This document shows, in pieces, positions 1,963 through 59,328 of a stretch of 64,000 nt of DNA (the stretch's first letter is position 1; every line of letters begins with the position of its first letter). The translations under genes were made by a program, and so were the position numbers. A model generated the notes under the pieces. The model saw only the letters and a program-made list of their open reading frames with translations, was not told the origin of the DNA and searched no databases. This DNA is from Bryum argenteum (lineage: Eukaryota; Streptophyta; Bryopsida; Bryales; Bryaceae). The stretch is from the NCBI GenBank assembly GCA_037043015.1, contig CM073321.1, positions 29,439,010-29,503,009 of the forward strand, written 5' to 3'.

Positions 1963-2265
1963 TTCTATTATCCCCGCACCATCTATAATTTGCTTCAACC
2001 GGATGGAAGTTTCTCCGAACGGGGATAACTTGCCTCTAATTTTCAGCAATTATCAACAATTATCCCCGACCCGGGGATAATTTGCCTCCGGAGATAATTT
2101 GCTCCATATATCTGAAGTATTCCTTGGTCCAAGGATAATCCGCCACTATTTATCACCATTTATCTCCGGTTCGGGGATAATTCGATCTCTATATCAGCAG
2201 TTATCCCCGTTCCGGAGATAATTTTCCTTGACTTATCAGGAGTTATCCCCGGTCTGAGGATAATC
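1963..2265. repeat. Palindrome array, element A motif (A1)
   Basis: Imperfect 21-bp palindromes, half-site TTATCCCCGG then one central base then the complement, recur about every 42-46 bp. Clear copies are at 2059-2079, 2117-2137, 2160-2180, 2201-2221 and 2243-2263; a decayed copy is at about 2011. The unique sequence between them is poorly conserved. Together with copies near 2479, 2639 and 2953 they lie upstream of, and in the intron of, the A1 gene. Confidence 0.85.
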
Positions 2266-2775
2266 TGCCTCTGTGTTTGAGATTCACAACAACAATTACA
2301 TTTCGACAGAGCCCCTTATCATAGATCAGAGAGATATCCTCTGTACAGAGGAAGTTATCCGAGGAGCGTAGATAATGTGCCATTGATGATGGGCAGTAAC
2401 CACTTGTTGAGGAAAAATTAACCTCGAATTAGTAGAATATGTACTCCAGGTGTGGAGCAAGCCACTTACTTCATACCATTATCTCCAAATCGGGGATAAC
2501 ATGCCCTACACATCAGGAAAATACCATCCCGCCAAACTATCTTTCTACTAAAAAACACATTTTACTCCCCCTCCAAAATACCAATGATGGTTATAGTTTA
2601 GTGAGATTATGTAGTAAAACTCAGCTAAAAAAATGCGTTATCCCCGGGTTGGGGATGAATTGACCTACCGTCCTACAAATTATTCGTATTGTCAAAATAA
2701 ACTAACGATTTATTTCATCTGTTTTACAGAGTGGTATCATCACATCTGGCGCAAAGAAAGAGCACCACTTGGAGC

Positions 2776-3431
2776 ATGAGGGCTAGCCCCAACAAAGTTC
2801 AAACAGTGTCTGAGGAGCGTCGCAAGAGGTTAGTCGAAGACTGTGACGTATCCGAGAGCTCGGATCATCCAAATCATCAGTAAGTCTAACAACCCCAATT
2901 TCTGTAGATGACATTAGACATGATCAAATACTGTCGCTCGTTAGTACATGAATTATCTCCGAGTAGAGGATAATTTGAGTGACCTTCATGCTTACAGCCT
3001 ATCGTCTCTAGATTTGTAAAAGCAAGATGGCAGCCGCAGTCACAGACACGAGCCCTGTGTTCCTGGTCATGGACCTATTCCAAAATCTATTTGGGGACAC
3101 TCCATTCCTCAGAGAAGAAGACATAGAGGCATCCAACCTCTTTCAATACAAGGATGTTGTTGTGAGCTGGATCCTAAAAATCCCAAGGAACACTTTTCTT
3201 ATTATGCATCGTAAGCAAATTAACGACGTCTACATTCCTCCGCATCAAAACGTTCGAGTTGTAGCTTTCGAGCCGCACCGGTCCAAGTTTGTCCTCATTC
3301 ATTGCCACCAACATTTCCATGAAAATGACAAAGACATCTACGAATTCAGAATTATTAAGGAAGTTGGAAGAAACTACGGTCCCCCGTTCGACCCGTATGG
3401 TTTCGTCGAGCATCTCTTGAAGGTTTATTAA
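2776..3431 (+). CDS. Element A N-terminal module protein (A1), two exons, truncated
   Basis: Exon 1 runs from ATG 2776 to 2879, with donor GTAAGT at 2880. Exon 2 starts near 3023 and ends at a TAA at 3429-3431. An upstream acceptor (ttttacag, near 2730) suggests a 5' UTR exon. The product is about 170 residues and contains TDTSPVFLVMDLFQ, FLIMHRKQINDVYIPPHQ and HRSKFVLIHCHQ. I recognise no domain. The matching A2 protein is roughly 80-85% identical by eye but continues into a ParB/methyltransferase-like protein, whereas this one stops soon after EHLLKVY. With no internal stop and good conservation it may be an expressed short form; truncation debris is the alternative. Confidence 0.5.
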
Positions 3432-3883
3432 AAATAGAATTATAACTATAAATACAAAGTAAAAGTATACCAAAAGTATTAAAAAACTATAAAAATCAAA
3501 TAAAAATATGTAATTTGAAAAACAAAAATATGTAAATAAATAATCCAAATTAAAAGTATAAGGGCTTCAGACGCACCGTTCAGGGGCCCCACACGCACCG
3601 CTTGAATAGAATACTAGAGCTAATTTACTAAACACTTATCATAGAATATTTCACTTAAAATAATTCAATTCTAATCTTAAAATACTACTACTAGAATATT
3701 TGAGTACCACACTTACAATACCATATGAAATTCAGAACATAGGCGTTAAATAAAAGTAAGAACATATTTATAAAGTCAAATAAGAAACAAAATAATTTAT
3801 ACACAATTTAGAACTTAGAAAAATTAGAAAACAAAAGTAATTAAAAATAAATAAAAAATAAAAAATGCATGCGCATGATGATG
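3432..3883. other. AT-rich spacer without genes
   Basis: AT-rich DNA between A1 and A2, with A-runs and one short GC patch near 3565-3605 holding two 'cgcaccg' words. I see no coding signal, terminal repeat or tRNA here. The sharp change in base composition at 3431 marks the breakpoint where A1 was cut. Confidence 0.5.
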
Positions 3884-4187
3884 TACATAGGCATGCCCAT
3901 GTACATCATCATGGGCATGCTTCTATCATGACATGGTCATGATGGCCCACTACGCCGCCATTTGCAAGCGCAGTCCTTTCCATCACTCCGCGCCCAGGTT
4001 CTCCCCGTACAGTGTCTTGCCCCTGCGCATTTGTCATCTTCGTCGTCGCAGCGAATCATTCCGCCTGCTCCCCGCGCTTGTCATCATGTCCGCGCTTGTC
4101 ATCCTCTCCGCGCTTGTCATCGTCTCCGCGCTTGTCTCGTCTACATTCCTTTGTCGCTAGACTCGTATTGAGGGATTCTTGCTTGCT

Positions 4188-4192
4188 CTCGC
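4188..4192 (+). repeat. Target-site duplication CTCGC, left
   Basis: CTCGC immediately before the TG start of the solo LTR. The same five bases follow its CA end at 5735-5739. The uninterrupted sequence in A1 (near 1270-1285, 'gctctcgccttcgcttgcc') shows the empty site with a single CTCGC, which confirms the insertion. Confidence 0.85.
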
Positions 4193-5734: not shown

Positions 5735-5739
5735 CTCGC
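5735..5739 (+). repeat. Target-site duplication CTCGC, right
   Basis: Right-hand partner of the duplication at 4188-4192. Sequence after it rejoins the A1-like sequence ('cttcgcttgcc..'). Confidence 0.85.
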
Positions 5740-5869: not shown

Positions 5870-6300
5870 TCAGCAATTATCCTCGGACCGGGGATAATTT
5901 GCTCCATATATCTGAAGTATTCCTCGGTTGGGGGATAATCCGCCACTATTTATCAGCATTGATCCCTGGTCCGGGGATAATTTATTCTCTATATTAGCAG
6001 TTATCCCCGTCCCCGGATAATTTTCCTCAACTTATCAAGAGTTATCCCCGGTCCAGGGATAATCTGCCTCTGTGTTTGAGATTCACAACAACAATTACAT
6101 TTTGATGGAGCCCCTTATCATAGATCAGAGAGATATCCTCTGTACAGAGTAATTTATCTCCGAAGCGTAGATACTGTGCCATTGATGATGGGCAGTAACC
6201 CCCAGTTGAGGAAAAATAAACTCGAATTAATAGAATATGTACCCTAGGTGTGGAACAAGCCACTTAATTGATACAATTATTCCCGAACCGGGGATAACAT
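5870..6300. repeat. Palindrome array, element A motif (A2)
   Basis: Copies of the TTATCCCCGG half-site palindrome at 5877-5897, 5918-5938, 5969-5990, 6001-6020, 6042-6062 and 6277-6297, with single copies at 6485-6505 and near 6800-6820. The layout is the same as in A1, but each copy has its own substitutions, so the arrays diverged after duplication while most sites stayed recognisable. Confidence 0.85.
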
Positions 6301-6623
6301 GCCCTAAACATCAGGAAAATACTATCCTCCGAAACTATTTTTTACTGAAAAACACATTTTACTCCCCCTTCAGAATTAAGTGAATATACGCTTTATAGTT
6401 TGTGACAATCTAAGTGTCGCGATATAAACCAATGATGGTTACAGTTTAGTGAGATTATGTAGTAAGACCGATTGGAAAAAGTCCATTATCCCCAGGTCGA
6501 GGATAAATCAACCTACGCTCTTACAAATTATTTGTATTGTCGGAATAAACTGACAATTTATTCCATCTGTTATACAGAGTGGTATCATCAAATCTAGCGG
6601 GAACAAAGAGCACCGCTCAGATC

Positions 6624-7300
6624 GTGAGGGCTAGCCCTGACAAAGTTCAAACAATGTTTCAGCAGAGTCGCAAGCGGTTAGTCGAAGACTGTGACGTATC
6701 CGAGAGCTCGGATCATCCAAATTATCAGTAAGTCTAACAACCCCAATTTCCGTAGATGACATTAGTCATGATCAAATATTGTCGCTCATTAGTACATGAA
6801 TTATCTCCGGGTAGAGAATAATTTGAGTGACCCTCATGCTTACAACCTATCGTCTCTGGATTTACAGAACCAAGATGGCAGTCGCAGTCACAGACACGAG
6901 CCCTGTGTTCTTGGTCATGGACCTATTCCAGAATCCATTGGGGGACACTCCATTCCTCAAAGAAGACGACATAGAGGCATCCAACCTCTTTCAATTCAAA
7001 GATTTCGTTGTGAGTTGGACCCTGAAGATTGTGAGGAACACTTTTCTTATTATGCATCGTAAGCAAATGAACGACGTCTACATTCCTCCGCATCAAAACG
7101 TTCGAGTTGTAGCTCTCGAGCCGCACCGGTCCAAGTTTGTCCTCATTTGTTGCCACCAAATTTTCCATGAAAAGGACAAGGACATCTACAAATTTGGAAT
7201 TATTGTGGAAGTTGGAACAAACTGTGGTCCCCAGTTCGACCCGGATGGTTTCGTCGAGCACCTCGAAAGGTACAGCATGGATTCCTTGAATCATCGGTGA
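6624..7300 (+). pseudogene. Element A N-terminal module (A2), two exons
   Basis: Counterpart of the A1 gene. Exon 1 spans about 6624-6727, with GTG where A1 has the start ATG. Donor GTAAGT is at 6728; the acceptor ttacag gives exon 2 from 6868. The protein shares TDTSPVFLVMDLFQN and FLIMHRKQMNDVYIPPHQ with A1. The frame reaches a TGA at 7299-7301, and the next coding stretch is in another frame, so a 1-bp indel or a missed splice lies near 7285-7300. It is probably the amino-terminal part of the long ParB/methyltransferase-like product. Confidence 0.5.
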
Positions 7301-7302
7301 AC

Positions 7303-8235
7303 CTTCATCTTTCTTGGGGCAAGCCTAAGGCGGATGATCTTACGCGGATATTGAACCGATTGTTGACAAATTTGTCAAAACAACCCGCTACATCCAAGAA
7401 GAAGGCTTCTCCAGCCAAACCCAATATGTCAGTTCCGGATCAGAGTCTGCAGACAAATAACCCTGAGTCGTCTGCCTCGGTGCGGTCGACGAGGAAGAGG
7501 AAATTGAACGCACAAGAGCAACCAAAGCCTTAGAGAAAGAGGAGATGCAGAGAATCCGAGGCACCGAGCAACGCCTCGGAGGTTCAGGAAACGAAGGCAG
7601 GCCCATTGGAGAAGAAGAAGAAGGCGAAGAAGGAGAAGAAGGGGAAGGATAAGGACGATGACATCGACTGGGCGAAGATGGCATTAGCCTAGACTGAGTT
7701 CCAGAAGGATTACGATGTTTCCTTCCTCTTCAACAAGAAACCAAAAGCAGTTACATTAGACCAACTGAGCCGCGAGAAGGCATAGTGGACGATTCGGGCG
7801 TTTAAGGAAGAAATCAAGGACAACCTGAAAGTATACCTCACTACGTTAGGAGACATCCGAGCTTGCAGGACTCTTGTCATCACACCTATCAAGGGGAACG
7901 ATGATCTTCTCGTTAGGAAGCCTAGGAGTTGGGACGAGATCAAATCCAAGAGTTTTGCGATCATCGACGGCCACCACTCCGTCGAAGCTGCCCGGGAGCT
8001 AATTAACGAGAAGCTCCCAGAGGATTGACATGTATCCCTTAAGACTTGAGATGCGTACGTTGTCTATGACAAGGACCCGACTCGGCTCACTGCGCACTAC
8101 AACACTACGAATCCCTTTACCTATAGTCAACCGACATGGGGGAACCAGATTCAATCAGGGCGCTCCACCTGGATCAACTGTGGACGTCCTTCAAATAGGT
8201 CAAACGCAAGCATCTATAACCCAAAGAAGTACAAG
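7303..8235 (+). pseudogene. ParB-like domain segment of element A (A2), with in-frame stops
   Basis: A lysine-rich linker (KKKKAKKEKKGKDKDDD) leads to a domain with LGDIRACRTLVITPI and FAIIDGHHSVEAARELI. The latter matches the ParB/sulfiredoxin-fold signature 'i.DG.HR..A'. In-frame stops are TAG 7531-7533, 7690-7692 and 7783-7785, and TGA 8026-8028 and 8047-8049. The 8047 TGA aligns with Trp in the element B copy (FRTWNAYVV). The reading frame is otherwise unbroken for over 700 bases. Known bacterial and phage proteins pair ParB-like domains with DNA methylases; here the methyltransferase-like part follows downstream. The donor GTATTT at 8236 ends the exon. Confidence 0.6.
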
Positions 8236-8635
8236 GTATTTTCGTTGAATGTTTTCATTACTATCCTTGAATTGTAGATATTTTGTTTATGTTGATCGGG
8301 TCATTCCTCGTGTATGGCTAACTCATTACCATATTATCCCCGACCCGGGGATAATTGCCAATTTGTCTTCGAACGTGTATTTAGCCTAGATTATCTAATT
8401 AGTATGTATCTTTGACCCTCGGAGAACTTTCATTTGCTCCTCGACTATGTATGCTTGCGAAGGAAATCAGAATTGGAATTATCTCCGACCCGGGCATAAT
8501 ACAATTCAATTTGCATTCCAGTCTATTTTTCCTTTCGAAGTTATTCCCGGTTCCGGGATAAGTTAGTCTTATGCGTTTGTGTATTCTTTATCATTATCGG
8601 CCGTTGTAATGACTACATCACGAGTTTGCCAATCT
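8236..8635 (+). other. Intron carrying three element A palindromes
   Basis: Starts at donor GT 8236; the acceptor is uncertain, near 8600-8635. Palindromes at 8334-8354 (near perfect), 8479-8499 and 8541-8562. The intron lies between the ParB-like part and the next exon. The element B gene has an intron at the matching place (53832-54144) that holds element B palindromes instead. Confidence 0.6.
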
Positions 8636-9969
8636 CTTGATCATGAGATTGAAGAACATTGACACCAGCAAAGAAGGCAAGAAAATCCAGTGCGCCGCAG
8701 ATCTGAAGCATGAGATCCTCACTATAACGCTGCAGGATGCGTGGTATGAGAAGTTCAAGGAGTTTTTGGAGAAGCATGTCGTTAGAAATGTCATCGACCT
8801 GGACACGGGAGACTACTACTACAAGAACAAGTCTTGGTTCTCCAATTTCAAGCACCACATCACCCGAGAATTCTTCCGAAAGCTTGGGAGGCTAACAAAT
8901 AAGGACATATACGAAATGTCTTGCCTTCTAGTCGATGTGTCCGACGAGCCTGGTCGTTGTCGGTACCCAAGTTGTTGAATTCGACGTGCAAGCACTTTCA
9001 CTATGATCAACAGTCTTCTTCTAAGAGGTACCTTCGCTGAAAGTCCAAGCGTATAGCCTTTCAAGAAATGAAGGTTGTAAGTCTTTGCTTCCGTTCTTCG
9101 AAGAAGATTCTTACAATATTGATGAGGAGAAGTGGAAGCTGTGGAAGCCGGCTCATGGATTTACCTCCGCGTCTTGGAACATGCTGCTTGGTCACATCGA
9201 CAAGGGATTCTACTCGGTCAAGGTGCAGAACCAATGAAAGCTGAAGACAACGAAATATTTGGAGGACAAGTATCTTGGCGTGGAGAAATTCTTCAAGAGG
9301 TTCATTCGCCTCCACAAGAATCTAGTCGGAGAGGTTGAATGGTGTTACCTTCGCTCGGTAAAACTTGCGAAAGAAACAACAATGAGCCCCCAATGAGTAG
9401 TACCATTGGAGAATGGCGTGTGCGGGCTTGGTGTGTTTGACCTTCAGGACACCATATACAGTGCCAGCAAAAGGGAGGACATGAAGATTGCTGTACTTCA
9501 GTACGTCATGAAGGTAGCTTAGGGTCTAAAAGACCCGGCGTACACGGCTCCCCCCATTTGGGTCTAGATAGCCAACGGGCCTTTGAAGTCCCTCATGACT
9601 TTGAGGAATGTGCTCCAACACTATTATCCGGGGCACCACATGGAGGTTTCGCAGTATAAGAAAGCTTCAAAGGAGAAGTTGTTCAACGACACAGCTCCAG
9701 AAAAGTCTGCGAATGACATCTGCCTGATATACCTATTCAGGAAGGGAGATCCCCACGCTGACAACTTCAAGAACACGATCAAACCCGAGTACAAGCCTGC
9801 GTTGGTGCCATACTATTCGGAGGCTGGGTTGTTCGCTGGGACGAAATGAATATCAAAACAAAGAGAACTCAGGATGGAGTTCTACATCGACCTCGTTCAC
9901 AAGTACTGCCAGATTGGGGATTCAACATTAGGAATCTTCGCCGGTTCAAAGTTCATGGTCGCGTCCGTT
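8636..9969 (+). pseudogene. Methyltransferase-like part of the element A protein (A2)
   Basis: Coding signal in several blocks: RLKNIDTSKEGKKIQC (matching B's RFSMIDIVSHQKEL), a middle block with SYNIDEEKWKLWKPAHGFTS, and a C-terminal block with NDICLIYLFRKGDPH, ELRMEFYIDLVHKYC and GDSTLGIFAGSKFMVASVV. The last resembles the C-terminal motif I of amino-DNA methyltransferases (D.F.GSG..), although FAGSK lacks the usual second Gly. TGA stands for Trp-like positions at three places (near 9031, 9236, 9395) and TAG at Gln-like positions (near 9521, 9567). The role is inferred to be N4/N6 DNA-methyltransferase-like; activity is doubtful for this copy. It ends at donor GTAAGT 9970. Confidence 0.5.
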
Positions 9970-10220
9970 GTAAGTGCCTATCATGTTTTATCCTCGGACC
10001 GGGAATAATTCTTCACTGTCCTATTTTGCTTTTATAGCTCTAAGTAAAATAGAGTTGTTTTCATATTCGCATAGTTATCCCCGGTCCGGAGATAACTACC
10101 CATTATCGAGAAATATATCCATGGTTTGCTTGACTTCATTGTCATCTTTATTCATATTATTTCCACCTCAGAGATAATTACTCAAATGCCATTGCTGAGT
10201 ATGTCACTCTCTTCTTCAGA
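9970..10220 (+). other. Intron carrying three element A palindromes
   Basis: Donor GTAAGT at 9970, acceptor cttcttcag ending at 10220. Palindromes at 9988-10009, 10075-10095 and 10159-10179. It directly follows the methyltransferase motif I block, exactly where the element B gene has a palindrome-filled intron (55492-56023). Confidence 0.7.
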
Positions 10221-21165: not shown

Positions 21166-21173
21166 CGTTGCTA

Positions 21174-41400: not shown

Positions 41401-41523
41401 AGTGCTTCACCTCATGAATAATATTTTTCACGACTTGCATGAATTTGATTGATCTTTGTTTGGCTGTCTTCAAAAGTTCAATTCTGTTTGTTTGAGTGTG
41501 GCTTATACAACTATTATCTTCTG

Positions 41524-46240: not shown

Positions 46241-46249
46241 CTCTCAAAT

Positions 46250-48652
46250 GTTCAACGTAGTTTTTTGTTTACATCCCAATCCGTACAATACTTTTGAACA
46301 TCCCTATCCCGTGATATGGGACGAAATAACTAAATTTCTACGGTATTAGATAAATCTGGGTTTGAATTTGGATCAAACATAGCACGCCCAAGCCAAAATG
46401 GGCGGCCATCTGTGCGGCATGGATGTAGTGCAACAAAATATCCCTTGTAAAGGTCACGTCCAACTCGGAATGACGGAGCTGATCGATCACGCCTTTGACC
46501 AACAAAGTACTCGTCCTCGCCGTACTCTTCACAAAGTGTCCCCTCCAATGTAAACTCATCTTCTACAGCATGTGCAAGACAAGTTGATGGCCAATGTTCC
46601 AAAGCTGAAGATTCCTCAAGAGTTGACGGGATACCATGTTGCGGAGATATTGGTGTATCCATAGGTATACAAAGAGCATCGTATACGTTTTTTATGTCCA
46701 ACCAATACTTCATTACCCTCTAGCAACTACTCGTGAAGGAAAGATTTGAAGTTGGGAACCTCTTGAACGAGGTGAGGAATGAGAGGAAGCGTCTCTAGCT
46801 TCATGAAACATTTTATGAAAAGAGGGATAGTAGGATAATCCTCCTTATGCAAAGCCATGCTCCAACGACCAAATAATGCATCTATGTCATCATGAGTGTG
46901 ACCGACTAGCATAAAATTAACATATACTTCTCGGAATACCTGTTTGGCTACGAGAAGGGACCAAAAATTGAAGACATACCTATTTTTGTTATCACTAACA
47001 GCATTATCCATTTGTACATTTAATACAGGAGGCAATAGCTTAGCTGGAACCAAAATGTCAAGAATTGGGCCAAGTGGATCCATATACATCTTTGAACCAT
47101 GTAGAAGAGCAGCGTACAGAGGATGCGAAGATGGCTCTGTAAAAAGTTGTCTGGAGAAGGATTTCGCCTGAGCCTCCATATCACGTAGCAACTTTGCAAA
47201 TGACCCCACAGTGTAATTTTTATCATTTGAGAAAATATCTAGTCCAAAATGTGCATAGCTGTGATCTACATGTCCATGAGCTAAAATGCTTGTTACTACA
47301 AGAGGCAACTTCATGAGACCATCTAAGTTCTTCACCTTGTGAGATAAGGCAGGAGAGGTTGTCTTTGAGTGGTCCATCTTGTCATGCATGATTGTAAGAA
47401 CCTCATAAGGCATTGTCTTCGACCTAAAACGGTTGAGGTAATACAAGACCCTATGAGCAAACGCCGAGTCCAAGTGCACACTTAGTTTCCTCGACCATAA
47501 AAGTGCAGATTGACCTTCTGGTAAGGTGAGCTTCATCAAGGAGTCTAACTCATCACAATTCAAGCACCGTGCAAAATTGTCCCTTGCTCTCTTGGCGTAG
47601 TACTCATGATAGCTGAGTCGGCGAATTTTGCTAAGGTTTGAAGCTGACACTAGTGGAAGCCCGCAGTCAGCAAGATGTTGACATATAGGCGGAATCTGAT
47701 CTTTCCACTTAAAACTTGAAGGAAGTATCTTCATTACAAGCTTCTCCCCTGATGAAAGGCTATGAGACTTGTGAGGCATGTGGTGTGCATGCCTAGCAAG
47801 TAATGCACCCAAGACAGCAGAAGCTACAACAGTATGAACCCTGGGCTTTCGTTTTCCAGTATTCCCATGGTGTTGGGCTTCAAAACCACTAGCTGCGTTC
47901 AAAGCGTTGCGATAAAAGACGCTAGAACTTACACCCATAGTTTGCATCCACGCTAACGAATATACATCTATACCTTCAAGTGTCACCACATTCCGCCTAC
48001 TAGCGTTTGTATGGAACTGTCGATGAACATCTAGTTTGATGTGATTTTTGAACTACACTTTTGTGTTTTCATACATGCGTGACCTAAGAACCTTTATCTT
48101 CTCTCTAGGATAGTGTTGGACACAGTTTTGGCTACAGCAGGTATTCGATGCGACTTCGTTGATAGATTGTGGAGTCAACACGTTTTGGGCTTTGAGAGAT
48201 GCTTGAGTGGGAGCGTTCCTATTCGAATTGTCATACAATTGAGTGCGTCTACCACGGACCCTACACTGTTCTTTAACCCATCGGTTGTACACATCTTGCA
48301 GGGTATGGTGCAAAAGACTTACAGCGTTCAAAAATACCTATTCAATGGGCCAAGACTTGAAGGAGTAAATCCAATAGTCACGATTGTCCACAGGGACAAA
48401 CAAAGTTGAAACTTGCACCACGATAAGAGAATCACCAAGGAGACTTGAAGTATCAGTAAGGGCACTGGATCGTAAATTTTGAGGTAAACCTTCTGCAATT
48501 TGGAGACCAGCCTTGTTGTGCAACGACACCGTCCTTCCCGACCAAAGCCAAGATGGAACAACCTGAAATTCTGGTATATCCGGGTTCATTGGTGGAACAA
48601 CAGAATTCTCCTCAGCCGAGGAGACGTCCATGCTGCACATGCACAGGAACAT
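46250..48652 (-). pseudogene. DUF7869-type transposase-like gene of element B
   Basis: Minus-strand frame from about 48652 to 46727 with TAG for Gln at 48340-48338, 48055-48053 and 46729-46727, then a 1-bp shift in an A6 run near 46700 and a C-terminal part that reads on through TAG 46332-46330 and a TGA near 46258. Features in order: NTCCSQNCVQHYPREKI (Cys-rich), SSSVFYRNALNAASGF, LTIMHDKMDHSKT, HVDHSYAHFGLDIF, PVLNVQMDNAVSDNKNRY, NFMLVGHTHDDIDALFGRWS, and a BAH/chromo-like end (YFVALHPCRTDGRPFWLGRA). This matches the DUF7869 family that I recall as common in non-seed plants. The spaced Asp residues suggest an RNase H-like transposase, which is my inference. Its start lies about 80 bp from the palindrome array. 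Confidence 0.75.
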
Positions 48653-48727
48653 AAGATATAAGTTTTAAGTTATGCAGACAATCACATAAAAGTCCTATAA
48701 TAGATTAATATCACGTCTCCTTGTACA

Positions 48728-49735
48728 GTTTAGCTGAAGTCGAGCTAACTATTGATTTGTAGAATGTCAGCTCATGTAGTTTGACTTGTATTCATTTAAA
48801 ATGTTTGACGATCTATGTTAATATCATATGACAAAGAACACTTTTGCGGTTGAGAAATTTAGCTTGACTCGAGCTAAACTTCATGACATGGAATCTCACT
48901 AACTTAACCTCCAGTCGAGCTGAATTGTATGTCATCACGTCCAACATAGTAAAGCATGCTAAATGATACAGAATGTTCAATAAATTAGCTGAAGTCGAGC
49001 TAAACTTCAGAGAGTGAAATGTAACGCAATTTAGTTCAAATCGAGCTAAAACGCTTACTAGTATTGAATGACCTGCAGATTAGCTCGACTCCGGGTAAAC
49101 TGATTAGCCAGAAATGAGTTTGACAGTAGCTCGAATCGAGCTAAAACTTGATGTATTGATTATGCTGCAATTTAGCTCGAATCGAGCTAAAATGCTAAGC
49201 CGTGAATGTCCTACATATAGCTCGAGTCAGGATAAACTGATATGCGGGAAATGTCTTCCACTTAGCTCAAATCGAGCTAACTTGTGTCCTACTGAATGTC
49301 CTGCAATTAAGCTCAATTCGAGCTGAATTGCTTTGCGGGAATTGTCCATTCATTTAGCTCGAGTCGAGCTAAACTGCTTAGCTGGAAATGACTTGCCATT
49401 TAGCTTCATTTGAGTTACAATTTTGAGTATCGGATGTCAAGCATATAAGCTCGAGTATAATATGTATAATAGAAAAAGCTCCTCAATTTAGCTCGACTCA
49501 AGCTAAACAACATAGTATTGGATGTCCAGCAGTTTAGCTTGACTCGAGCTTAAAATCATTGTATCAGATGCCTTGCAATTCAGCTCGACTCGAGCTAAAC
49601 TGCTCGAGTGGGGAATTCCTGTAATTTAGCTCGAGTCAAGCAAAACTGCTCGACTCTGAAAGTCCCGCAATTCAGCTCGACTCGAGCTAAATTGCTCAAC
49701 TAAGAAAATCTCACTATTTAGCTCAACTCGAGCTA
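48728..49735. repeat. Palindrome array, element B motif, about 46-bp period
   Basis: About twenty copies of a 21-bp palindrome, half-site TTTAGCTCGA, one central base, complement. From 49029 to 49735 they recur every 41-50 bp (for example 49171, 49217, 49262, 49309, 49354, 49399, 49447, 49488, 49534, 49580, 49623, 49670, 49713). Spacers share only a faint 'ctgctt....ggaatgtcctgcaa' pattern, while the palindrome is well kept. The array sits between the minus-strand transposase and the plus-strand modifier gene. Confidence 0.95.
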
Positions 49736-51538
49736 AATGGCTTTCCTCTTTCGTTCCCGAGAATTACGGCGCATATATTGGATTGATCACACCTCCTGAT
49801 ACTCTGAAAGCAGTAGATTTGCACTCGATAAGGATGCAACCAAAATGAAAGCTTGCATGAACTTACATTGAAAACACACATTGTAAAAGAAAGCAGTAAA
49901 GGCGTCTACGACGCCTCTGGTACAATACTTTGCCTAGTATACGTTGACGACTCCGAAACCGAACTATAAAATTCAAAAAGCACTATTACGCACAATAATA
50001 AAGATACAATTCTTTATGTTGCCATATACCGTGGAGTCATACCTTAAGGCTTGTGTGGAATTCATCTGGATCGCGACCTGGAGCTCGATGGAATCTTAAA
50101 CGCCGACGGAGCCAAAAACCTTGAAGGAGGGACATCACCTTCACATAATGAGGAAAAGGAATCAACACAGCCATGTTCTCAGAGGTCATTCAGATTCGTC
50201 TGATCGTTTCCCGCGCTCCTCCTTATCTCGAGATGTGGCGGGAGATACATATGCGATACATCAGGAAAATCAATGGTGGGATTTCGGGAGGATACTTTCT
50301 TATCCCTATTTTTCTACATAGAAGTGGCATCCGCAAAGTATAGCGGGAATCCACCCTTGATTCGTGCCGACTTCGACGAATTCTGTACATCACCGCTACG
50401 AGCATTTGTCGTCGGCAAGGAATTGATGTGGCAAATGTCCTCTTAAATTGGTAAGGCATACTCAAAAATTGTCAAAGATTAGGTTGTAAAAGGTAATTGT
50501 CGCCCCAAGCGCCATTTCCGTATTGAAATTTCTCAAAAACGGCCGTCAGGAGTTCAAAATTGAAATTTCTCATCAATCGTTGGCCAAAACTCATTGGCCA
50601 AAATAGGCTTCCGATGAAAGCATGCATTTCAAAGTTAGCATGCAATTTTTGACCATGCAATTAAATTTTAGGCATACTCGAATAGTTTATATTTGAAAGA
50701 TAATTATATTCTTTTAAATATTGTATGTTCATTTTTACCGTAGTTAAGAAATAAATGTACGATGTCCTATTAAATGAATAGAGAAATGAGTAGTTTAATT
50801 GTTTTTATGGACATCAATGATTATGTGTATTGCTTAATGAGATTCGATTCAATTCAAAGTTTCACTTAGATGGGTTTTTATGCATGTGGATATGGTTTAT
50901 TTCACATGTCAACTTGAATGGATACTTTGTTTATGATGAGTTGTAATTATCAATCTTCTCAAATTAGGTGTTTTATAAGCGTTTTGTGGCATTTCAAAGT
51001 CCCTCGTAATGAATACATTAAAAATGAGTATCTTTTATAGAGTGCCATGGATTGCATATGATTAGGTACTTTACATAATTCAATGTCAATAATTAAGAGT
51101 TTTCACAAAAACATAACGATATTGAATTCTCAATAATAACAAACTAAAACAACTTGATAAGGAATCTCTACGCAATATCCTCTTAAGAGCATAAAAAAAA
51201 TGTTATAGAATGGATTACTCCAAATAAATATGCTACTTAATATAAGGCTCTCAACTTGCTTTGCAATAAATAACATAAAGCATATATTAAAAGAGCGAAT
51301 TCAATGTATCAAATGTAATTATCCAATATAATATATTATACCGGTAATATTTTGAACATTATGTACGACACTTTGACAAAATGGTTAGCATGAGGCATAA
51401 CAACATGCAATGATAATTAAATTGCATTACGGCTCATCAATACATCCAACCAAAGCGATAGAGAGGACTACTTTCATTCTACTTCGCTCCACTATGAATA
51501 AAACATTAACTTATACCTACATAAGGTACTAGAAACCT

Positions 51539-51625
51539 AAATACTAAACCCTAAACTTCAAACTTTAATCCTAAATCCTAAACCCTAAACCGTAAACACT
51601 AAACCTTGAACCCTCAATCCTTAAC
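51539..51625. repeat. Degenerate telomere-like tract
   Basis: A run of CTAAACC-type words (taaaccctaaac, taaatcctaaaccctaaacc). Degenerate plant-type telomere repeat, interstitial. Confidence 0.6.
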
Positions 51626-52210
51626 TCAAAATGCTAAACATCACCCACAACTTCTACTGCATCACGAACACCCTGCTTTGTATGTTTACTATCACTAACA
51701 ATTTTACACTTTTGTTCATCTTACAAGTACAAGTCTCTATTTTTAATCATATCTGCTAGGTTTTATGCTCCAAGATGAGTAACATTGAGAGAAAGTCTTA
51801 ACTTATCTATCAAATTCAGTGCAAAGAGTGAAAATAGCTTGCTATATTACGTCAAAGCATATACCAAAATATTTGATCAAGTGTAGGTCAGCTCATGTCA
51901 AGAAATTCAAAATATAGGACTTGAAATGAAAGTAATCCTCTCATGTTAAATAGATCCTTACATCAATAAGGGACATGGATGTATTATGGTCACCCTTGAA
52001 TGTGAAATGTGCTCATCTGAATGACTTTAACTTCTGCTAAGCTATTTATTTTTAATGATAGACGTACGTAAATAGTTTTCAGTAATAAATAATAATAACA
52101 ATCTAATCGTAATTATCCATGGAATACCAATGATAACGTTCAAAAATATGAATAAAATTTGCACTATATTCATAATAATGTTAAATAACTTGCTATATAT
52201 TACTATCAAC

Positions 52211-52549
52211 GTTGTCATACCGGGCGGGCAGGCCGCCCGCCTGTCCGCCCGCCTTGTCCGTCCAATTGAGTTGTGGCTCGCCCGATAGGGTCAAACGGCT
52301 GTTGACTTTTAGTTTAGGTAAAAAAACGACGACGTGGCAAGGGTTTAGGTGAAAAGTAAGCCACTTGGCCGCCGCGTACGGGCCGCGTGGAACCCCCTAC
52401 ACGCTTTTTACTGCAAAGTTTGTTACCCACAAAAAATTACACACCCCCTACAATCAAGGTGGGCGGGCACCCCCGTCTGTCCGGGACAACTCGTACGCCC
52501 GTTTTGCCCGCCCGATTACCTCAACACGCCCGATATGACAACCTTGATT
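52211..52549. mobile_element. GC-rich MITE-like element
   Basis: A 340-bp GC island in AT-rich DNA with inverted ends: left GTTGTCATACCGGGCG, right the complement of CGCCCGATATGACAAC (15 of 16 match). The interior repeats GGGCGGGC/GCCCGCCC words near both ends. No coding capacity. A target duplication is not obvious, and the hAT- or other superfamily origin is open. Confidence 0.65.
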
Positions 52550-53399
52550 ACTATACATAATGTATTCCTATAGTAATGTATTATATAGCCATAATTACCA
52601 ATATAGTGAATATTATATTTTTGTAACATATCATTAACTTGTACATATAAATTCTATGTAAAAGTATATTGAGAATACATGGCATTATTTACTAATATGT
52701 AGTCATTACTTATGGACAAAAGTTGGAAACTAAATCCATTATACATGAATCCAAAAGTAATACATTAACATGAACAAACGTTGAAACTAAACCCTTTGCA
52801 CTTGAATCCAAGAGTAATACTTATGTACCTTGCCATTTACAAAAGTTGGAAAATAAACCACGCTTCAAGATTTGAATTCAACAGTGATACTTATGTACAT
52901 TAACATGGACAAATGTTGGAAACTAAACCATTTACACTTTAATTAAAATTTAATACTCATGTAAAGAATATAAAAATGAAAAAGTATTCATGATTTCACA
53001 TAAATATGGTGCTAGGGTAAACATGCCACATGTCTAGGAATATCGAAATCTAAAACCTAAACAATAACCAATATACTTTACTAATTTAACTTAATATACT
53101 AATCTCTAAAAATAAACTTGGTTGAAAATGGTAATAAGAATTGTAATGTAAAGTTCTCATACTTAAAATAGAGTATAAAATATTGCAGATCAACTTAGTT
53201 CCAAAAAAATGACAAAACTAAATAGAAAACTAATATTATTAAACTTAGTACTAAACTTAGCGTGTTTGAATTAGCATTCTATTGTTGCTGAGAAAAAGAT
53301 GATTAATAAAAGTGAATGAATTAAAATTTACATGTTAGAAAATATAATTACGAGTACTAAACTTAGAGAGAAAAATGGTGGAATAAATCAAATTTTGAA

Positions 53400-53831
53400 A
53401 AATGATTGCCATGGCCATAATCATGTCACTGAAGCAAACTCTCTACGTCATGCTCGACTTGAATTAAGCCAAGGAATGAACGGGTTATGGCGGATTGCAA
53501 ATTCTTCATTATTAACGGCCAGCATAGCGTCGCTGCATCGAAGGAGATGATCGAAAGACAGTCAGTCCGTGAGCCAATTCGAAAGGACTTTCGAACTTGG
53601 AACGCCTACGTTGTTTGGACTGAGGATGTCCACAAGCTCCGCAAAATATCGGCTTTTTATAACAGAGTGAATTACTTTACTTAGTTTAAGCTGACGTAGG
53701 CGACGAATATCCTTGCCGCTTGAAAGGTGTGGGAGGAGTTTAGGTGTCAACTACCAAGATGCGAAGCATCTGGAGTGGCAGGAAATCGGATTAAGCCGAA
53801 GAGAGCCGCAAGCCAAACTATCGCGTACGAT
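53400..53831 (+). pseudogene. ParB-like domain segment of element B
   Basis: The frame reads CKFFIINGQHSVAASKEMIE (ParB-like signature), DFRTWNAYVVWTEDVHKLRK and ISAFYNRVNYFT, followed by TAG and TAG at Gln-like positions and TGA at an Arg-like position, then KVWEEFRCQLPRCEASGVAG. It is homologous to 7930-8130 of element A (FAIIDGHHSVEAARELI). The donor GTAAGC at 53832 ends it. The part before 53487 is in poor frame. Confidence 0.6.
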
Positions 53832-54144
53832 GTAAGCGCTCCTCAAACCTCTTCGTCCAAGTTTAGCTCGAATCGAGCTAAACTGCACAATGAATCTCAA
53901 AACCACTACAGACTACTTTAGATCGAGTTGAGCTAAATTGCACAAGCAACACTGTGAATAAGGATCCCCTTGGTTTAGCTCGGTTCAAGCTAAACTGTAG
54001 TGATATTATGTTAGCTTTGTCATTACTCAGTACTTGTTGAGCACCTATGTAATTTAGCTTGATTCGAGCTAAATGTTGGGCTCCATCGAATCTTAATACT
54101 CATAACTGCTACTCAATTATGCCGAAATTCTTTTCGGCTATTAG
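53832..54144 (+). other. Intron carrying four element B palindromes
   Basis: Donor GTAAGC at 53832, acceptor cggctattag ending at 54144. Palindromes near 53861, 53918, 53974 and 54054. It occupies the same place in the gene as the element A intron that begins at 8236. Confidence 0.65.
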
Positions 54145-55491
54145 CACAAGGTTCTCAATGATCGACATTGTCAGCCATCAGAAGGAACTTAACAAGAAGG
54201 GCGGAAAAAAATTGTTTACCCTTACAAACGAGATCAAGATCATCACCGCTCCGCAACACCTCTATAATCTCTAGGAATCGGTGATTACATGCGCCGCCCA
54301 ACGAAGCCTTGTTGACCCCGAGTTCAAAACCGGATCGAAGTTTAAGGACAAAGAGGACTTTATTCCGGACAAAGATACAACTCTTAATTGGGAGTTCTTC
54401 AAGTTCCTTCGCAACCTCTCCGAAAGTGACCACGAGAAGCTCTGCAGACATATCTTGAACGAGTCAGGGCCATCAAGAAACTGTATTACCTGAAGGTTGT
54501 ATAAAAGCAACTAAAGGCACTGCTGGAGGACTGTTACGCTTGGAAGAAATACGTTGAACGATTGAAGCAGAAAGCTATCGCCCAACTCCAGCTTCAGAAG
54601 ACCAATCCTGAATTGGGGTATTTTCAAGGGCAATGTACTTGACGTTCAGGCGTGGGAACAGTTTAAGAAGGAATACTACGTCACAAAAGCGTCGAAACAA
54701 GCACTTCTCGAGTGGGGTGTTCCCAACATTTACCACGCCAACCAGAAGGCGACCATGCACCGGAACAGCAACTGCGAGGACATCTCGCCATACGCGAAAG
54801 AGTTCTTCCGCGTATTCCTTGACGTCCGACAACGATTCCAATCGTCGAGTGGGGTCGTTCATACTCGGTTTTCCAACGGGCGAACCCGATGAAGCTTCAT
54901 GACTGGGGCGAAGATTCATGGGGTACCGATCGCGAAGACCCTAATCTTGGAATTATCGACTTCAGACTCATTCCAAGATCCGCTAGAAAGGCAAAATTCA
55001 TTGTCGAGAAACCGTTCTTCGAGATGTTCATGAACATCTTCGGACAGCAAGATAAGCCTTCTCTCAAGGCTATTCCTCTCTCGCTGTTTATATGTGGGGA
55101 TGAAAAAGACTTTGAGCAAGTTCAACACTTTGCAAAGACCAGTCTCTACTTCAATGGTGTGAATTAAATGTTAATTCAATCCATTTACCAGCCTTCCGTT
55201 AACGAGCGTCTTGGAGGGTTTCCGGCTAAGAGTAAGCAGGCCGTGAAGCCTGTACGACTTCTCTTCCTCAAGCAGTCATCCGTTGTGGTCATGGGGGAAA
55301 TAAAAGCAATTTACTCCGTCCCATCACACATACTGTACCAGAAGCCGCAAAAATACAATGAGGTGGAGTACAACATGTTCTCAAAGGAGCTGAAAATAGA
55401 GTTCTATCTGCACGTCATCAATCTCTTCTGCGGCCCCAATGAATCTGTGTGCCTTATCTGTTCCGAGTCAAAAGCCGTTACTACAAGCACA
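54145..55491 (+). pseudogene. Methyltransferase-like part of the element B protein
   Basis: Begins RFSMIDIVSHQKELNKKG (compare A: RLKNIDTSKEGKK), and has NWEFFKFLRNLSESDHEKL, a helical block, KEYYVTKASKQALLEWGVPN, LHDWGEDSWGTDRED, FFEMFMNIFGQQDKPSLKA, then ILYQKPQKYNEVEYNMFS and LKIEFYLHVINLFCGPNESV followed by CLICSESKAVTTS, matching A's FYIDLVHKYC...IFAGSKFMV. 'KP' followed by a C-terminal glycine-poor motif I is the order of permuted amino-DNA methyltransferases. Several frame changes and stops (TAG 54272-54274, TAA 55165-55167) show decay. ICSESK replaces the Gly-containing motif, so catalysis is unlikely in this copy. Confidence 0.5.
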
Positions 55492-56023
55492 GTAAGATAC
55501 GAGCCAGTTTAGCTCGACTCGAGCTAAATGGTATCATTTCCGTTCTTGTCATGACATAGATTTGTCATATATTCAAGTGCAAGTAGTTTAGCTCGAGTCG
55601 AGCTAAACTATATCATTTCAATTCCTTGAACGCCATTGAATTCTTGCTTAGTCTGCTATCCTAGTAATTCAGTTTAGCTCGACTCGAGCTAAACTATGGC
55701 ATTTCCATTCCTTTGGACCCCATTGATCTCTTGTCCTTGATTGCTTTTCTGAGAATATAATTTAGCTCGACTCGAAGTCTTGAACTAAATTCTGTCAATT
55801 GCATACTTCCGGACACATTCATTTCCTGCTTAGTATATTTCTCTGAGCATGTAGTTTAGCTCGACTCGAGCTAAACTACGAGATATTCTTACTTCTGAAC
55901 TCTTTGATTGTCTTCTTAGTCTGCCTTCCTTAGCGTGTGGTTTAGCTTGAATCAAGCTAAAAGGCTTGGTCTGACTTCTCGCCGTCGTCCCTTAGATGAT
56001 ATTGAGTGAAACTTTTGTTATAG
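55492..56023 (+). other. Intron carrying six element B palindromes
   Basis: Donor GTAAGA at 55492, acceptor ttgttatag ending at 56023. Palindromes near 55507, 55588, 55673, 55761 (with an internal 9-bp insertion), 55854 and 55942, several perfect over 20 or more bases and about 85 bp apart. It follows the motif I-like exon, like 9970-10220 in element A. Confidence 0.75.
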
Positions 56024-56880
56024 CCTACACTGATGACTCTGAAGACATACACCAAGCATTTCAAACCGGTATTATACTTGATCCAAAGATTTCAACATAA
56101 ACGGATATCCAGTTGTTGCTAATTTCCACCCAATCATCGGGAAAGCCCTCTTGAAGGAGAAAGTCAAGGTGGATCCCGTCGATGACAAGAGTATGAAGGT
56201 TGAAGGAGGTGAAGGAGAAGAAGAAGATGATGACATAGAAAGTTGCCTCTAGCGCAGAGGATGGCGAAGGCAGTGCGCGCCAAACTGGATCGGTTGAGTA
56301 AGACGCCTCTCGGCTACGGATGCGGAAGCCTCACTTCGAAGACCTACCACAAGACAGCCCCAACATTCTGCGGACTTCAACGGAATCGCGTAGCGCGTCT
56401 AGGCGTGGCAAGGACTCCGGTAATCTTAAGCGGAAAGGTCCCGCAATCGCCAAGGAATCTCCAAAGTCGAGGTTCTCTGTATCAGCAATGATTTCTTCAC
56501 TCAAGAAAAAACTTAAGGAAGAGCAAGAAGCGATTGCCAGAATGGCAGTAGAATTCCGTCTTCGCAACGCTCAGCGCAATGAGGAGGCAAAGAAGAGACA
56601 CCAGAGTATGGTCGAAATGTTTAATGAGGCCATGAGGGGCCTGAATCCATCTAAACTTCCTTCTGCGTCTGTGCCTTCTGCAATTGCAGTTGCTAGTACT
56701 CAAAGTTTAGGTGCAGGTACTTCTCATGGAGAGCATCGCCCAACTGCCGACACTGCACCTCAAGCCGTAGCTAACGTGGAGATTCACGAGTCAACAGCGC
56801 ATCCGCCTACGTCAATTCCGCAAAATACTGAGTGTGAGGCAGAGGTGGAGGAGAAATCCACAGGTCCCACTTCTACTTAG
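56024..56880 (+). pseudogene. Acidic and coiled-coil region of element B
   Basis: Begins AYTDDSEDIHQAFQTG, with a TAA at a Gln-like place before TDI (compare TxQTDI in A), then an acidic block (EGEEEDDDIE). An open frame 56320-56880 follows: a basic Ser-rich part, a coiled coil (ISSLKKKLKEEQEAIARMAV, RNEEAKKRHQSMVEMFNEAM) and a low-complexity tail, ending TAG 56878-56880. It is equivalent in order and style to 20237-21165 plus 40060-41400 of element A. No enzymatic domain; likely oligomerisation. Confidence 0.5.
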
Positions 56881-56989
56881 ATAATGAGAACATTGTCTAG
56901 TTGTTGAGTTGTAAATACCGGTAGAACACTTGCACAACGTGAATTTTTATACAAATCTCAAACATGTTATTTGTAATTAATACAGGCAA

Positions 56990-57022
56990 TACCACGTTCA
57001 TTTTAGCTCGACTGGAGCTAAA
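56990..57022. repeat. Single element B palindrome between modules
   Basis: TTTTAGCTCGACTGGAGCTA, a single copy with one mismatch, in the spacer between the coiled-coil and HAD modules. Confidence 0.8.
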
Positions 57023-57129
57023 TTACCCATCATCCAGATCACCTTCATGTTCGGTTCACACTCCTTCTCCCTCCTCGACCCTACATTGTGTTGTCTGATT
57101 TCAATGAGCTTGTATTGCATTGAACAGAT

Positions 57130-58263
57130 GTAGAGGGTGATAATCAAGATATTGATACTCCGGTCATGGAAGATGTATTAGTTATTCTTGTTCGCCATGA
57201 TCCGAATCCTCCATAGGACACACCCAATTACACTGAAGCATTGCTTCTCGGCAATGATCCTACATTGGGTGATGTTATAGATTGCACCCAACAGTCGCTA
57301 GGATCAATGGGCCTTTGAGATGATGACGAGATAGGCAATGAGGATATCTAGGTACTTCCATTCAAACCATGTTCATCTATAGAATTCATCGAAAATTTGT
57401 ATCAGAATATGTTATCTTTGGATTTATTTAATCTGTTGCAAAGAAACCTTAGTAATGTTGGCGTGTTGCGACGTGCTTGCTATCTAGGTTCAAAACACAA
57501 GAGTCTCTGATTATTCTAGTGAAGAAATAGGTTTTATACCAAAGGAGTCAAGCAAAGTTTGGTTAAATGTTGTCATCAACCTCAATGGGATCATGTGTTA
57601 TTGTTCCCCTACATGGGAAGCTAAGGGATCCAGAAACCGTGACATCACTGTATACTCGGCCGCGGTGCCAACTAAGGTGGGGAAGAAACTAGTATGGGTT
57701 AGGCTTGGTTGTAAAGACTTCCTTCCGAGTTGGCAGCGTTTGCCACTATCACGTTTTGGAGTTCTACGATGACAACAACGACTAAAGCAATTTGTGATTA
57801 CCACTTTGGTCCAATAAAACCTACTAAGCCCTTACAAATTCTTGGTCAAGAAGACTGTGATAGAGTGCCCGTGCGGAATGTTGGGGGCCAAACTATTTTC
57901 ATGAAGGAATCAGGAACCCAGATAGATATTTTCCTTAAGACCATGTCTGCTCATCTCTTTGATAGCTATGATGGTCTATATATAGAGGCCAATACTCTCT
58001 TCATTGACGTTAGTCCGATTAAGCACATGTTAAATCTTAGTAAGAATGTTCTTTTACTGCCTTCGTGGACTTACAAAGTCAATAGGGCTGAAGAGGACTC
58101 TGTTTTACTAGACGAGATTTTGCCATATCTCATAGAGCTTCATGAGTTCTCAGGATCTCTCAAGAAGTATCGCACATCCCATCTATTTGGGCAACCTATG
58201 CTTTATGATGATAGAGCAACGTGTTCTATATATACTGAAATCCCAAGGGTCATGTCACATTAG
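57130..58263 (+). pseudogene. FCP1-type HAD phosphatase-like domain of element B
   Basis: KVWLNVVINLNGIMCYC is the motif 1 region, but both Asp of DxD are Asn (NLNG), so catalysis as known in HAD phosphatases would be lost. GCKDFL and then FATITFWSSTMTTTTKAI (motif 2, Ser-Ser) follow after a 1-bp shift near 57725. FLKTMSAHLF, IEANTLFIDVSPIKHML (DDSP-like motif) and LPSWTYKVNRAEEDSVLLDE complete the fold, as in element A. The readable frame 57730-58263 ends in TAG. The region 57130-57540 ahead is poorly readable (EDVLVILVRHDPNPP-like). Confidence 0.6.
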
Positions 58264-58608
58264 CAACTTTTTTCTTCTTCTTGTCTATCGAAAAATGTAC
58301 ATGCCTTTTTCTGGGTTCAATTTTATTGTACCCTGATTTTGTTTTTCCTACCTTGAAAATAGCAAGTTCTGTTGTATGTTCAGATCTGAGTGAAGTGTGC
58401 TTAGGAGTCTAATTCTGAATATTGTATGTTCTGAAAGAACTAGACTAACAATTGTTTATTTGTCGATTATCGTTTCAATTATACATAAAAGATTACGCAG
58501 GGGGGTTGTCGTGCTTCATTAGATTTGTTGATCAATGGTGGGGGAGTAGGGCCAACACTCCGGAGTAGAGGTCTATTAATGCAGTGAGCTGCAACGGCTC
58601 AGTCAACC

Positions 58609-59328
58609 ATGGATTTCTTGACCATGGCTGTGGACGATGGAGTGGTAAACAATCCCGTAGCAAGCTGTCAAGTACGTGAATTGGATCAGTCACCTTCGCC
58701 CGCGAGGTCACTTTCAGTAGGTCAAAATTTTAATCCGATTCAGAATAGATGTGGACGCATCAATCGCATCTTGTATGACGGAGAGGCGGACACTGCTCAT
58801 GATTTATCACCAAAGGTTAGTTTTGTTGACCCTTTTGAAGCATTTTTTTTGGATTTTGCTGTAATTAGTGATATTTAAATGGTTATAAGGTACTTCTAAA
58901 GTATGAGGTACAATGCTCTCATAAGGAGAAATTATTTTAGCTCGAGTTGAGCTAACTTTAGTGCCCTTTAAGGCATGAATAGATATGCTACAGGCTTGGT
59001 ATTTCCTTAATTCGCTCTAAGATGGAATCGAATTTATCATGTGCAGGAGGAACCTTCAGAACCTCAGTCTCCTATTGGTTTGTGGACTGATGTAAAGGAA
59101 GCGACGAAGAGTTTGTCCGAAAAGCGCCGCCACTCGCAACCTAAATCGATCATTGAGGATAATCAAAGAAGAAGCTTGCAACGACTGTTGGATAGCCCTA
59201 CGATGCAAGAGAATGATTGCGGATGGACACGTCAGCGTCAACGTGCGTTCATAAAGTCTCATATCATTGCATATGGTAGAACGCCCTATATAGTGATAGC
59301 TAAATTACTGTTGAATACAGTGAATTAA
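58609..59328 (+). CDS. C-terminal module of element B, two exons
   Basis: Exon 1 starts ATGGATTTCTTGACC (58609) and ends near 58816 (donor gttagt); exon 2 starts after tgtgcag at 59045 and ends at TAA 59326-59328. Sequence features: SCQVRELDQSPSPARSLS, ATKSLSEKRRHSQPKS and RRSLQRLLDSPTMQ. It is Ser/Arg-rich like the last module of element A. The intron 58817-59044 carries one element B palindrome (about 58933-58953). No domain is recognised. No premature stops in the two exons. Confidence 0.4.

What the first reader, a model, noticed from the sequence alone, without database searches (positions are those of the whole stretch)
1963..59328. Two elements share one cargo but each has its own palindrome, in matching introns
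Seen: A and B both encode ParB-like, methyltransferase-like, coiled-coil, FCP1/HAD-like and Ser/Arg-rich modules in the same order. A carries about 30 copies of a palindrome with half-site TTATCCCCGG; B carries about 30 with half-site TTTAGCTCGA. Both are 10-1-10. The copies lie upstream and in introns, and two introns at matching gene positions (8236 and 9970 in A; 53832 and 55492 in B) hold the respective palindromes. Known: Arabidopsis VANDAL elements use VANC proteins that bind short motifs spread through their own non-coding DNA to counter silencing. Inference: here an element-encoded ParB/methyltransferase-like protein recognises the private palindrome, to mark, protect or regulate its own DNA, and protein and motif change together.
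Basis: partly seen in the sequence, partly recalled or inferred. Interest (0 to 1): 0.92.

Follow-up and report, generated by a model that had tools for sequence, protein, structure and literature searches.

The report
Jumping genes with private palindrome tags
Two worn copies of a large jumping gene, probably from a plant, each carry dozens of copies of their own short mirror-image DNA tag, and across the genome the tag changes in step with the element's own genes, as if each lineage uses a private address to recognise itself.

Summary
The palindromes are real, far beyond chance, and track the element's lineage. Window A and B are decayed copies of two clades of one family of large DNA transposons. 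B copies measure about 19-20 kb between ~25-bp terminal inverted repeats (AACCTCGTATTCGTTATAATGGGAG), with 4-bp target duplications in 9 of 10 pairs tested and in window B. They carry a DUF7869 gene (candidate transposase) divergent from a gene with a (D/N)GQH motif, followed by an NIF/FCP1-like phosphatase and a Ser/Arg-rich part. Palindromes lie in both promoters and in introns; none of the 33 read in one B copy falls in an identified exon. Two further clades, C and D, have their own 10-1-10 palindromes in the same intron. All keep a frame, TT.....CG(R)-N-(Y)CG.....AA, with a private core. In 296 B sites the centre base is free while the arms are 95-100% kept, as for a dimer's DNA site. Most likely an element-encoded protein binds the tag to activate or un-silence its own lineage, as VANC does in Arabidopsis VANDALs; binding and function are untested. 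'ParB-like' rests on one motif; 'methyltransferase' finds no support. Known logic, apparently unrelated element, new kind of site.

The parts
45359..59623 (+). Element B: internally deleted copy of a TIR DNA transposon (14.3 kb here; 19.5 kb in the copy C5:9755693-9775223)
   Evidence: Both ends found by comparison with the C5 copy; both ends listed among the genome's TIRs at C1:29484368 and C1:29498632
45359..45383 (+). Left TIR of B (AACCCGGTATTCGTTATAATGGGAG)
59599..59623 (-). Right TIR of B (AACCTCGTATTTGTTATATTGGGAA on the minus strand)
45355..45358 (.). 4-bp target duplication ATTT, left
59624..59627 (.). 4-bp target duplication ATTT, right
46688..48661 (-). DUF7869 gene of B, candidate transposase (83% identical to the C2 copy over 658 residues)
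   Evidence: Pfam PF25273 E 5.8e-35; tblastn
48729..49737 (.). Array of 19 B palindromes, about 46-bp spacing, 5' of the DUF7869 gene
   Evidence: the C2 copy (L115) has 8 B sites in the same place
53425..53831 (+). B: remains of exon 1 of the (D/N)GQH-motif gene; 5' part and its promoter array missing (limits approximate)
53832..54124 (+). B intron 1 (limits approximate) with 4 palindromes (53862, 53917, 53974, 54053)
   Evidence: limits by comparison with the C5 copy
54125..55491 (+). B exon 2 of the (D/N)GQH gene (broken frame; limits approximate)
55492..55995 (+). B intron 2 (limits approximate) with 6 palindromes (55508, 55587, 55673, 55761, 55855, 55941)
55996..56877 (+).
   Evidence: homologous to the C5 copy; only a sub-threshold Pfam match (ADIP, E 0.022); no coiled-coil predictor run
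57002..57022 (.). Single B palindrome between two coding blocks
57567..58257 (+). B NIF/FCP1-like phosphatase part
   Evidence: homology to L066 ORFs, one of which matches NIF PF03031 E 7.4e-6; the window's own fragments gave no match
58936..58956 (.). Single B palindrome between two coding blocks
1968..2973 (.). A: first upstream array (9 palindromes)
5877..6821 (.). A: second, duplicated upstream array (7 palindromes)
6878..8235 (+). A: first exon parts of the (D/N)GQH gene (N-terminal part also at 3021-3416; limits approximate)
8236..8612 (+). A intron 1 (limits approximate) with 3 palindromes (8334, 8479, 8541)
8613..9969 (+). A exon 2 of the (D/N)GQH gene (limits approximate)
9970..10213 (+). 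A intron 2 (limits approximate) with 2 palindromes (9988, 10075)
20844..21583 (+). A element, middle piece, with 2 palindromes
40737..44049 (+). A element, 3' piece: 4 palindromes, NIF/FCP1-like part (41733-42755), Ser/Arg-rich part (43234-44049)
   Evidence: the homologous Ac ORF matches NIF E 7.4e-7
44607..44631 (-). Right TIR of A (AAGGGTGTATTCATTAAATTGAGAC on the minus strand)
   Evidence: sequence; compared by eye with the A TIR

Best explanation
A and B are decayed members of one family of large TIR DNA transposons with 4-bp target duplications. Each lineage has filled its promoters and introns with a private 10-1-10 palindrome. A protein made by the element (first candidate: the (D/N)GQH-motif gene product) binds the palindrome as a symmetric dimer, marks the copies of its own lineage, and activates or un-silences them. 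Protein and tag change together, so lineages stop recognising each other. SHOWN: transposon structure, gene content, palindrome arrays, placement, one tag per clade in the loci fetched, constraint on two genes, dyad conservation. INFERRED: binding by an element protein, which protein, dimer, activation or anti-silencing, DUF7869 as transposase.
For: Ends: TIRs with 4-bp duplications in 9 of 10 B pairs, 0 of 90 crossed pairs, plus window B (ATTT) and the C5 copy (TATG); 97 TIRs at up to 3 mismatches, control 0. One element: 101 of 150 DUF7869 hits lie within 25 kb of a listed (D/N)GQH hit (random mean 28, largest 43 of 200 draws), 90 of these 101 upstream on the opposite strand. Tag follows clade: 29 of 30 A-like loci hold A sites and 0 of 30 B sites; 30 of 30 B-like loci hold B sites and 0 of 30 A sites; clades C and D have their own palindromes in the same intron, 875 and 127 exact copies, controls 0; tree with 5 label changes, least possible 4. 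Site anatomy: centre base A85 G58 T92 C61 in 296 B sites, arms 95-100%, outer symmetric pairs G 88%/C 91% and A 76%/T 71%. Placement: 33 of 33 sites in the 18 kb read of the C5 copy lie outside identified exons (23 upstream, 3 and 5 in introns 1 and 2, 2 between coding blocks). Constraint: dN/dS 0.05-0.39 in seven pairs of the (D/N)GQH domain (six with dS at most 0.44, one with dS 1.7), 0.13 and 0.27 in two DUF7869 pairs. Tag outlasts neutral change: two A subclades share the tag though one pair across them has 54% protein identity and saturated synonymous sites. Same layout as VANC targets (PMC5735166 passages).
Against: No binding, methylation or expression data. No recognised DNA-binding domain in the candidate protein; folds failed. 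All genes of the element travel together, so the tree cannot say which protein follows the tag. The 60 A-like and B-like loci were fetched as best matches to two queries, so many are near copies. Clade D rests on one labelled row; L069, its neighbour, has only a decayed site (by eye), and the A-like locus L021 has none. B and C tags differ in only 2 of 10 half-site bases. In the nearest-neighbour check 7 of 69 A sites and 2 of 50 D sites lay nearest to a B-type hit, and 43 of 50 C and 42 of 100 B sites had no listed hit within 15 kb (hit lists incomplete).
Confidence: 0.55

Rival explanations
1. The palindromes are binding sites for the transposase or a helper, needed for movement itself (like TNPA sites in En/Spm, recalled), not for gene control.
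For: A roughly 265-bp non-autonomous family with related TIRs keeps one palindrome, TTTAACTCGATTGGAGTTAAA or close, in 10 of 15 stretches read; several of these copies are clustered on C10 and may not be independent.
Against: Sites sit in promoters and introns; in the C5 copy the nearest good site is 0.7 kb from the right end and only a degenerate one (4 mismatches by eye) lies near the left end.
Confidence: 0.2
2. The sites recruit a host transcription factor or insulator and work as enhancers; different lineages adopted different host factors.
For: Placement in promoters and introns; dyad form is common for host factor sites (recalled).
Against: A shared frame (TT, CG) with a core that changes with the element clade is more simply read as one diverging protein family.
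Confidence: 0.12
3. The sites act in RNA (intronic hairpins, splicing, small RNA).
For: Many copies lie in introns.
Against: They are also dense in promoters; in B the bases next to the centre are 99-100% kept while the centre is free, but in an RNA hairpin all three would be loop.
Confidence: 0.05
4. Neutral tandem duplication spread one palindrome by chance in each lineage.
For: Regular spacings of 38-46 bp show that tandem duplication does occur.
Against: Free centre with kept arms, symmetric outer positions, and the same tag in A subclades with saturated synonymous sites.
Confidence: 0.05

Closest known systems
VANC / VANDAL anti-silencing system of Arabidopsis (PMC5735166 passages seen; PMC10398659 abstract and outline seen)
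   Same: Short motif, private to a lineage, repeated in introns and upstream of the element's own genes; expands by tandem repeats; motif and protein change together.
   Different: VANC21 motif is 9 bases, arrayed in one orientation, in Mutator-type elements (element type recalled); here a 21-bp palindrome, a TIR element with 4-bp duplications, no VANC-type protein found by Pfam, and no test of silencing.
Sola DNA transposons (PMC10741241 passages)
   Same: 4-bp target duplications; some over 15 kb; reported from the moss Physcomitrella patens.
   Different: Not compared: no Sola transposase sequence was at hand; our candidate carries DUF7869.
Lanisha (PMC12730594 passages; the Repbase report not held; a link to moss sex chromosomes is recalled)
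   Same: Belongs to an EnSpm-like group that makes 2-5 bp duplications; recalled as described from a moss.
   Different: [quoted passage not shown] termini are AA..TT, not the CA..TG that most of that group have.
Bacterial ParB-parS
   Same: A (D/N)GQH motif like that of ParB/DGQHR domains (recalled) beside clustered palindromes.
   Different: No profile or fold support; arrays in promoters and introns, not a partition site.

Membership tests
VANDAL/VANC | lineage-private motif arrays in introns and upstream of own genes | tested here: met
   compare PMC5735166 passages
VANDAL/VANC | motif and protein co-diverge | tested here: met
   in the loci fetched
VANDAL/VANC | Mutator-type element (recalled) with longer target duplications (MULE 7-12 bp in PMC10741241 passage) | tested here: not met
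   4-bp duplications and ~25-bp TIRs
VANDAL/VANC | VANC-type protein (domain recalled as DUF1985) | tested here: not met
   no Pfam match of weight in 82 aligned (D/N)GQH-gene members (best E 0.0018, Tmemb_cc2, 2 of 82); no DUF1985 either
VANDAL/VANC | protein removes silencing marks from bound copies | not testable with these tools
   needs methylation and expression data
Sola | 4-bp target duplication | tested here: met
   feature from PMC10741241
Sola | Sola-type DDD transposase | not tested
   no Sola sequence at hand; DUF7869 has invariant D427/D430, D552 and D592/D594 in 8 rows
Lanisha/CMCT | C(2)C and H(3-4)H between second D and last E | tested here: inconclusive
   not seen after D552, but the catalytic residues are only guessed; feature from PMC12730594
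Ginger | 5'-TG..CA-3' ends, TIR 40-270 bp | tested here: not met
   ends AACC..GGTT, ~25 bp; feature from PMC10741241
ParB-like domain | sequence profile or fold match | tested here: inconclusive
   motif only; no profile match; models of low confidence
DNA methyltransferase | profile match | tested here: not met

The most novel reading that the evidence does not exclude
A self-address code that arose independently of VANC in another transposon type: one protein family reads dyads with a constant frame (TT.....CGR-N-YCG.....AA) and a private core, each lineage fills its promoters and introns with its own core, and the binder may load and spread like ParB to keep silencing off. At least four codes coexist in one genome.
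Probability: 0.3. Interest if true: 0.9.

Novelty: new variant of a known kind. Interest (0 to 1): 0.8.

Why it matters
VANC in Arabidopsis is the one worked case that came up in our searches of transposon-encoded proteins that recognise private motifs of their own lineage. A second, unrelated case would show that such self-recognition codes are a general way for transposons to escape silencing with little harm to the host, and the coexisting tag-protein pairs are a ready-made set for learning how protein and DNA site change together. It also gives DUF7869 a likely job.

Tried and rejected
Telomere-like ends: (CCCTAAA)/(TTTAGGG)-like runs at 51.5 and 62.8 kb first looked like element ends; the C5 copy has no such run and true ends lie elsewhere. 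A 267-bp inverted pair around the C5 copy is a separate repeat. The Merlin-like transposase beside the A copy on C3 lies outside its right TIR, so it is not part of it. A-type ends: of 10 pairs fetched only one (C3:6055480-6076554) had two true ends, with duplication ACAA; in the other nine one of the two hits lay in sequence conserved beyond it, so it is not an end. A duplications thus rest on one copy; the copy on C7 gave no right end. Structure: two jobs failed in confidence, so no fold search was run. Relatives in viral contigs: none for either protein. No other eukaryote genome could be searched. In one search, of 14 pairs one (L118/L120) is a frame slip of my own crop and was dropped, and four have saturated dS and give no ratio; the other nine are reported.

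Papers: in ten searches no paper holds the word DUF7869, and none in the listings shown names such palindromes in its title or abstract start. Only open-licence papers are held and lists were cut, so this is weak.
Full report
OBSERVATION. The two palindromes exist as described: 27 A sites and 31 B sites at up to 5 mismatches in the window, half-sites far above shuffled expectation, and 1901 A (up to 2 mismatches; control 1) and 5878 exact B copies (control 0) in the 258.8-Mb genome. B sites: 19 at 48729-49737, 4 in intron 1, 6 in intron 2, one each at 57002 and 58936. A sites: 9 and 7 in two duplicated upstream blocks, 3 in intron 1, 2 in intron 2, and 6 in pieces further on.

WHAT THE ELEMENTS ARE. 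Comparison with a longer copy on contig C5 gave both ends of B. The window copy spans 45359-59623 between ~25-bp inverted repeats and an ATTT duplication; the C5 copy spans 9755693-9775223 with TATG. Ten further end pairs, 19-20 kb apart by their coordinates, were fetched: 9 of 10 show an exact 4-bp duplication (the tenth shares 2 bases), 0 of 90 crossed pairs. Some other pairs are 28-32 kb apart, probably with insertions. The genome holds 97 such ends at up to 3 mismatches, control 0. The A clade has related ends (AAGGGGATATTCGTTATTTTGAGAC); one of ten A pairs had two true ends, with ACAA. So these are, by structure, TIR DNA transposons.

GENES. On the minus strand: a gene with Pfam DUF7869 (E 5.8e-35 in the window; a 679-residue frame in L115) with invariant acidic residues D427/D430, D552, D592/D594 in 8 rows; I take it as the transposase, by inference. 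The A and B copies on C3 and C5 match in protein in two parts of the (D/N)GQH gene, in the phosphatase part and weakly (E 6.7e-4) in the Ser/Arg-rich part, in the same order. Of 150 DUF7869 hits, 101 have a listed (D/N)GQH hit within 25 kb (random mean 28.0, largest 43 in 200 draws); in 90 of 101 it is the divergent arrangement. All three hit lists were capped at about 150, so these are lower bounds. dN/dS is 0.05-0.39 in seven pairs of the (D/N)GQH domain and 0.13 and 0.27 in two pairs of DUF7869.

WHERE THE SITES LIE. In the 18 kb read of the C5 copy 23 sites are upstream of the (D/N)GQH gene, 3 in intron 1, 5 in intron 2 and 2 between later coding blocks; none falls in an identified exon. 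A copy on C2 holds 8 B sites 5' of the DUF7869 frame, as the window does. Intron 1 sits at one protein position in A and B and carries the palindrome in clades C and D too.

ONE TAG PER CLADE. Of 30 A-like loci, 29 hold A sites and none B sites; of 30 B-like loci all hold B sites and none A sites (L005 and L035 are the window's own copies). Nine distant loci gave three more A loci, four loci of a clade C with TTCAACTCGA-N-TCGAGTTGAA or close, one of clade D with TTATCGTCGGGTCGACGATAA, and one D-like locus (L069) with only a decayed site, seen by eye. Exact copies in the genome: C 875, D 127 (centre three bases open), controls 0. On the tree, B and C are each one group with strong support, and A is one group that also holds the site-less L021; 5 label changes for 5 labels, least possible 4. 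The rows are not all independent: the window, C3 and C5 copies appear twice, and many loci are near copies. A looser neighbour test agrees in the main: A sites 54 nearest A, 7 nearest B, 8 none of 69; B 58 B, 42 none of 100; C 7 C, 43 none of 50; D 38 D, 2 B, 10 none of 50 (hit lists incomplete and sorted into types by me).

WHAT READS THEM. In 296 B sites the centre base is evenly spread while the arms are 95-100% kept, and symmetric weaker positions continue outward (the arms were part of the site definition, the centre and outer positions were not). Two A subclades share the tag, though a pair across them is 54% identical in protein with saturated synonymous sites. All tags share TT at the outside and CG near the centre, with a private core: A TTATCCCCGG, D TTATCGTCGG, B TTTAGCTCGA, C TTCAACTCGA. 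This is what a family of dimeric DNA-binding proteins with changing specificity would leave. The window copies are worn: 7 of 31 B sites and 0 of 27 A sites are exact. A roughly 265-bp non-autonomous family keeps one tag in 10 of 15 stretches read.

MECHANISM. By analogy with VANC, whose motif repeats lie in introns and upstream and change with the protein (PMC5735166 passages), I propose that an element protein binds its tag and activates or un-silences copies of its own lineage. Neither binding nor effect is shown. The candidate has no recognised fold, so the name ParB is a motif resemblance only, and methyltransferase finds no support.

PLACE AMONG KNOWN THINGS. Four-base duplications fit Sola, which a review reports from a moss (PMC10741241 passages); Lanisha (PMC12730594 passages) is another candidate, which I recall as described from a moss. 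Neither could be tested. The element may therefore be known under some name; the tag system was not seen in the paper listings.

I lowered the observation verdict to partly confirmed (module names), corrected the count of saturated pairs to four, and limited several statements to what was read.

Noticed in passing
genome contig C1 (44.1 Mb): 232 of 300 listed (D/N)GQH hits lie on C1, which is 17% of the genome; a good part carry stops. It may be a sex chromosome or another non-recombining region.
   Followed up: no
L068:6322-7236: Open 305-residue Merlin/IS1595-type transposase frame (PF12762, E 2e-22) just outside the right end of an A copy.
   Followed up: partly
L100-L114: Small non-autonomous family of about 265 bp with TIRs of the same kind; several copies clustered on C10:1.12-1.25 Mb.
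   Followed up: partly
window 51527-51625 and 62767-62858: Degenerate plant-type telomere-like repeats inside the window in opposite orientation.
   Followed up: partly
window 27157-27424; L078/L065 and L066: A 267-bp dispersed repeat, once in the window and as an inverted pair (90% identical) around the C5 copy.
   Followed up: no
window 10925-12509 and 14481-14998: 681-bp inverted arms, 96% alike, and a third copy, with GC-rich 21-bp tandem repeats beside them, inside the A element's interruption.
   Followed up: no
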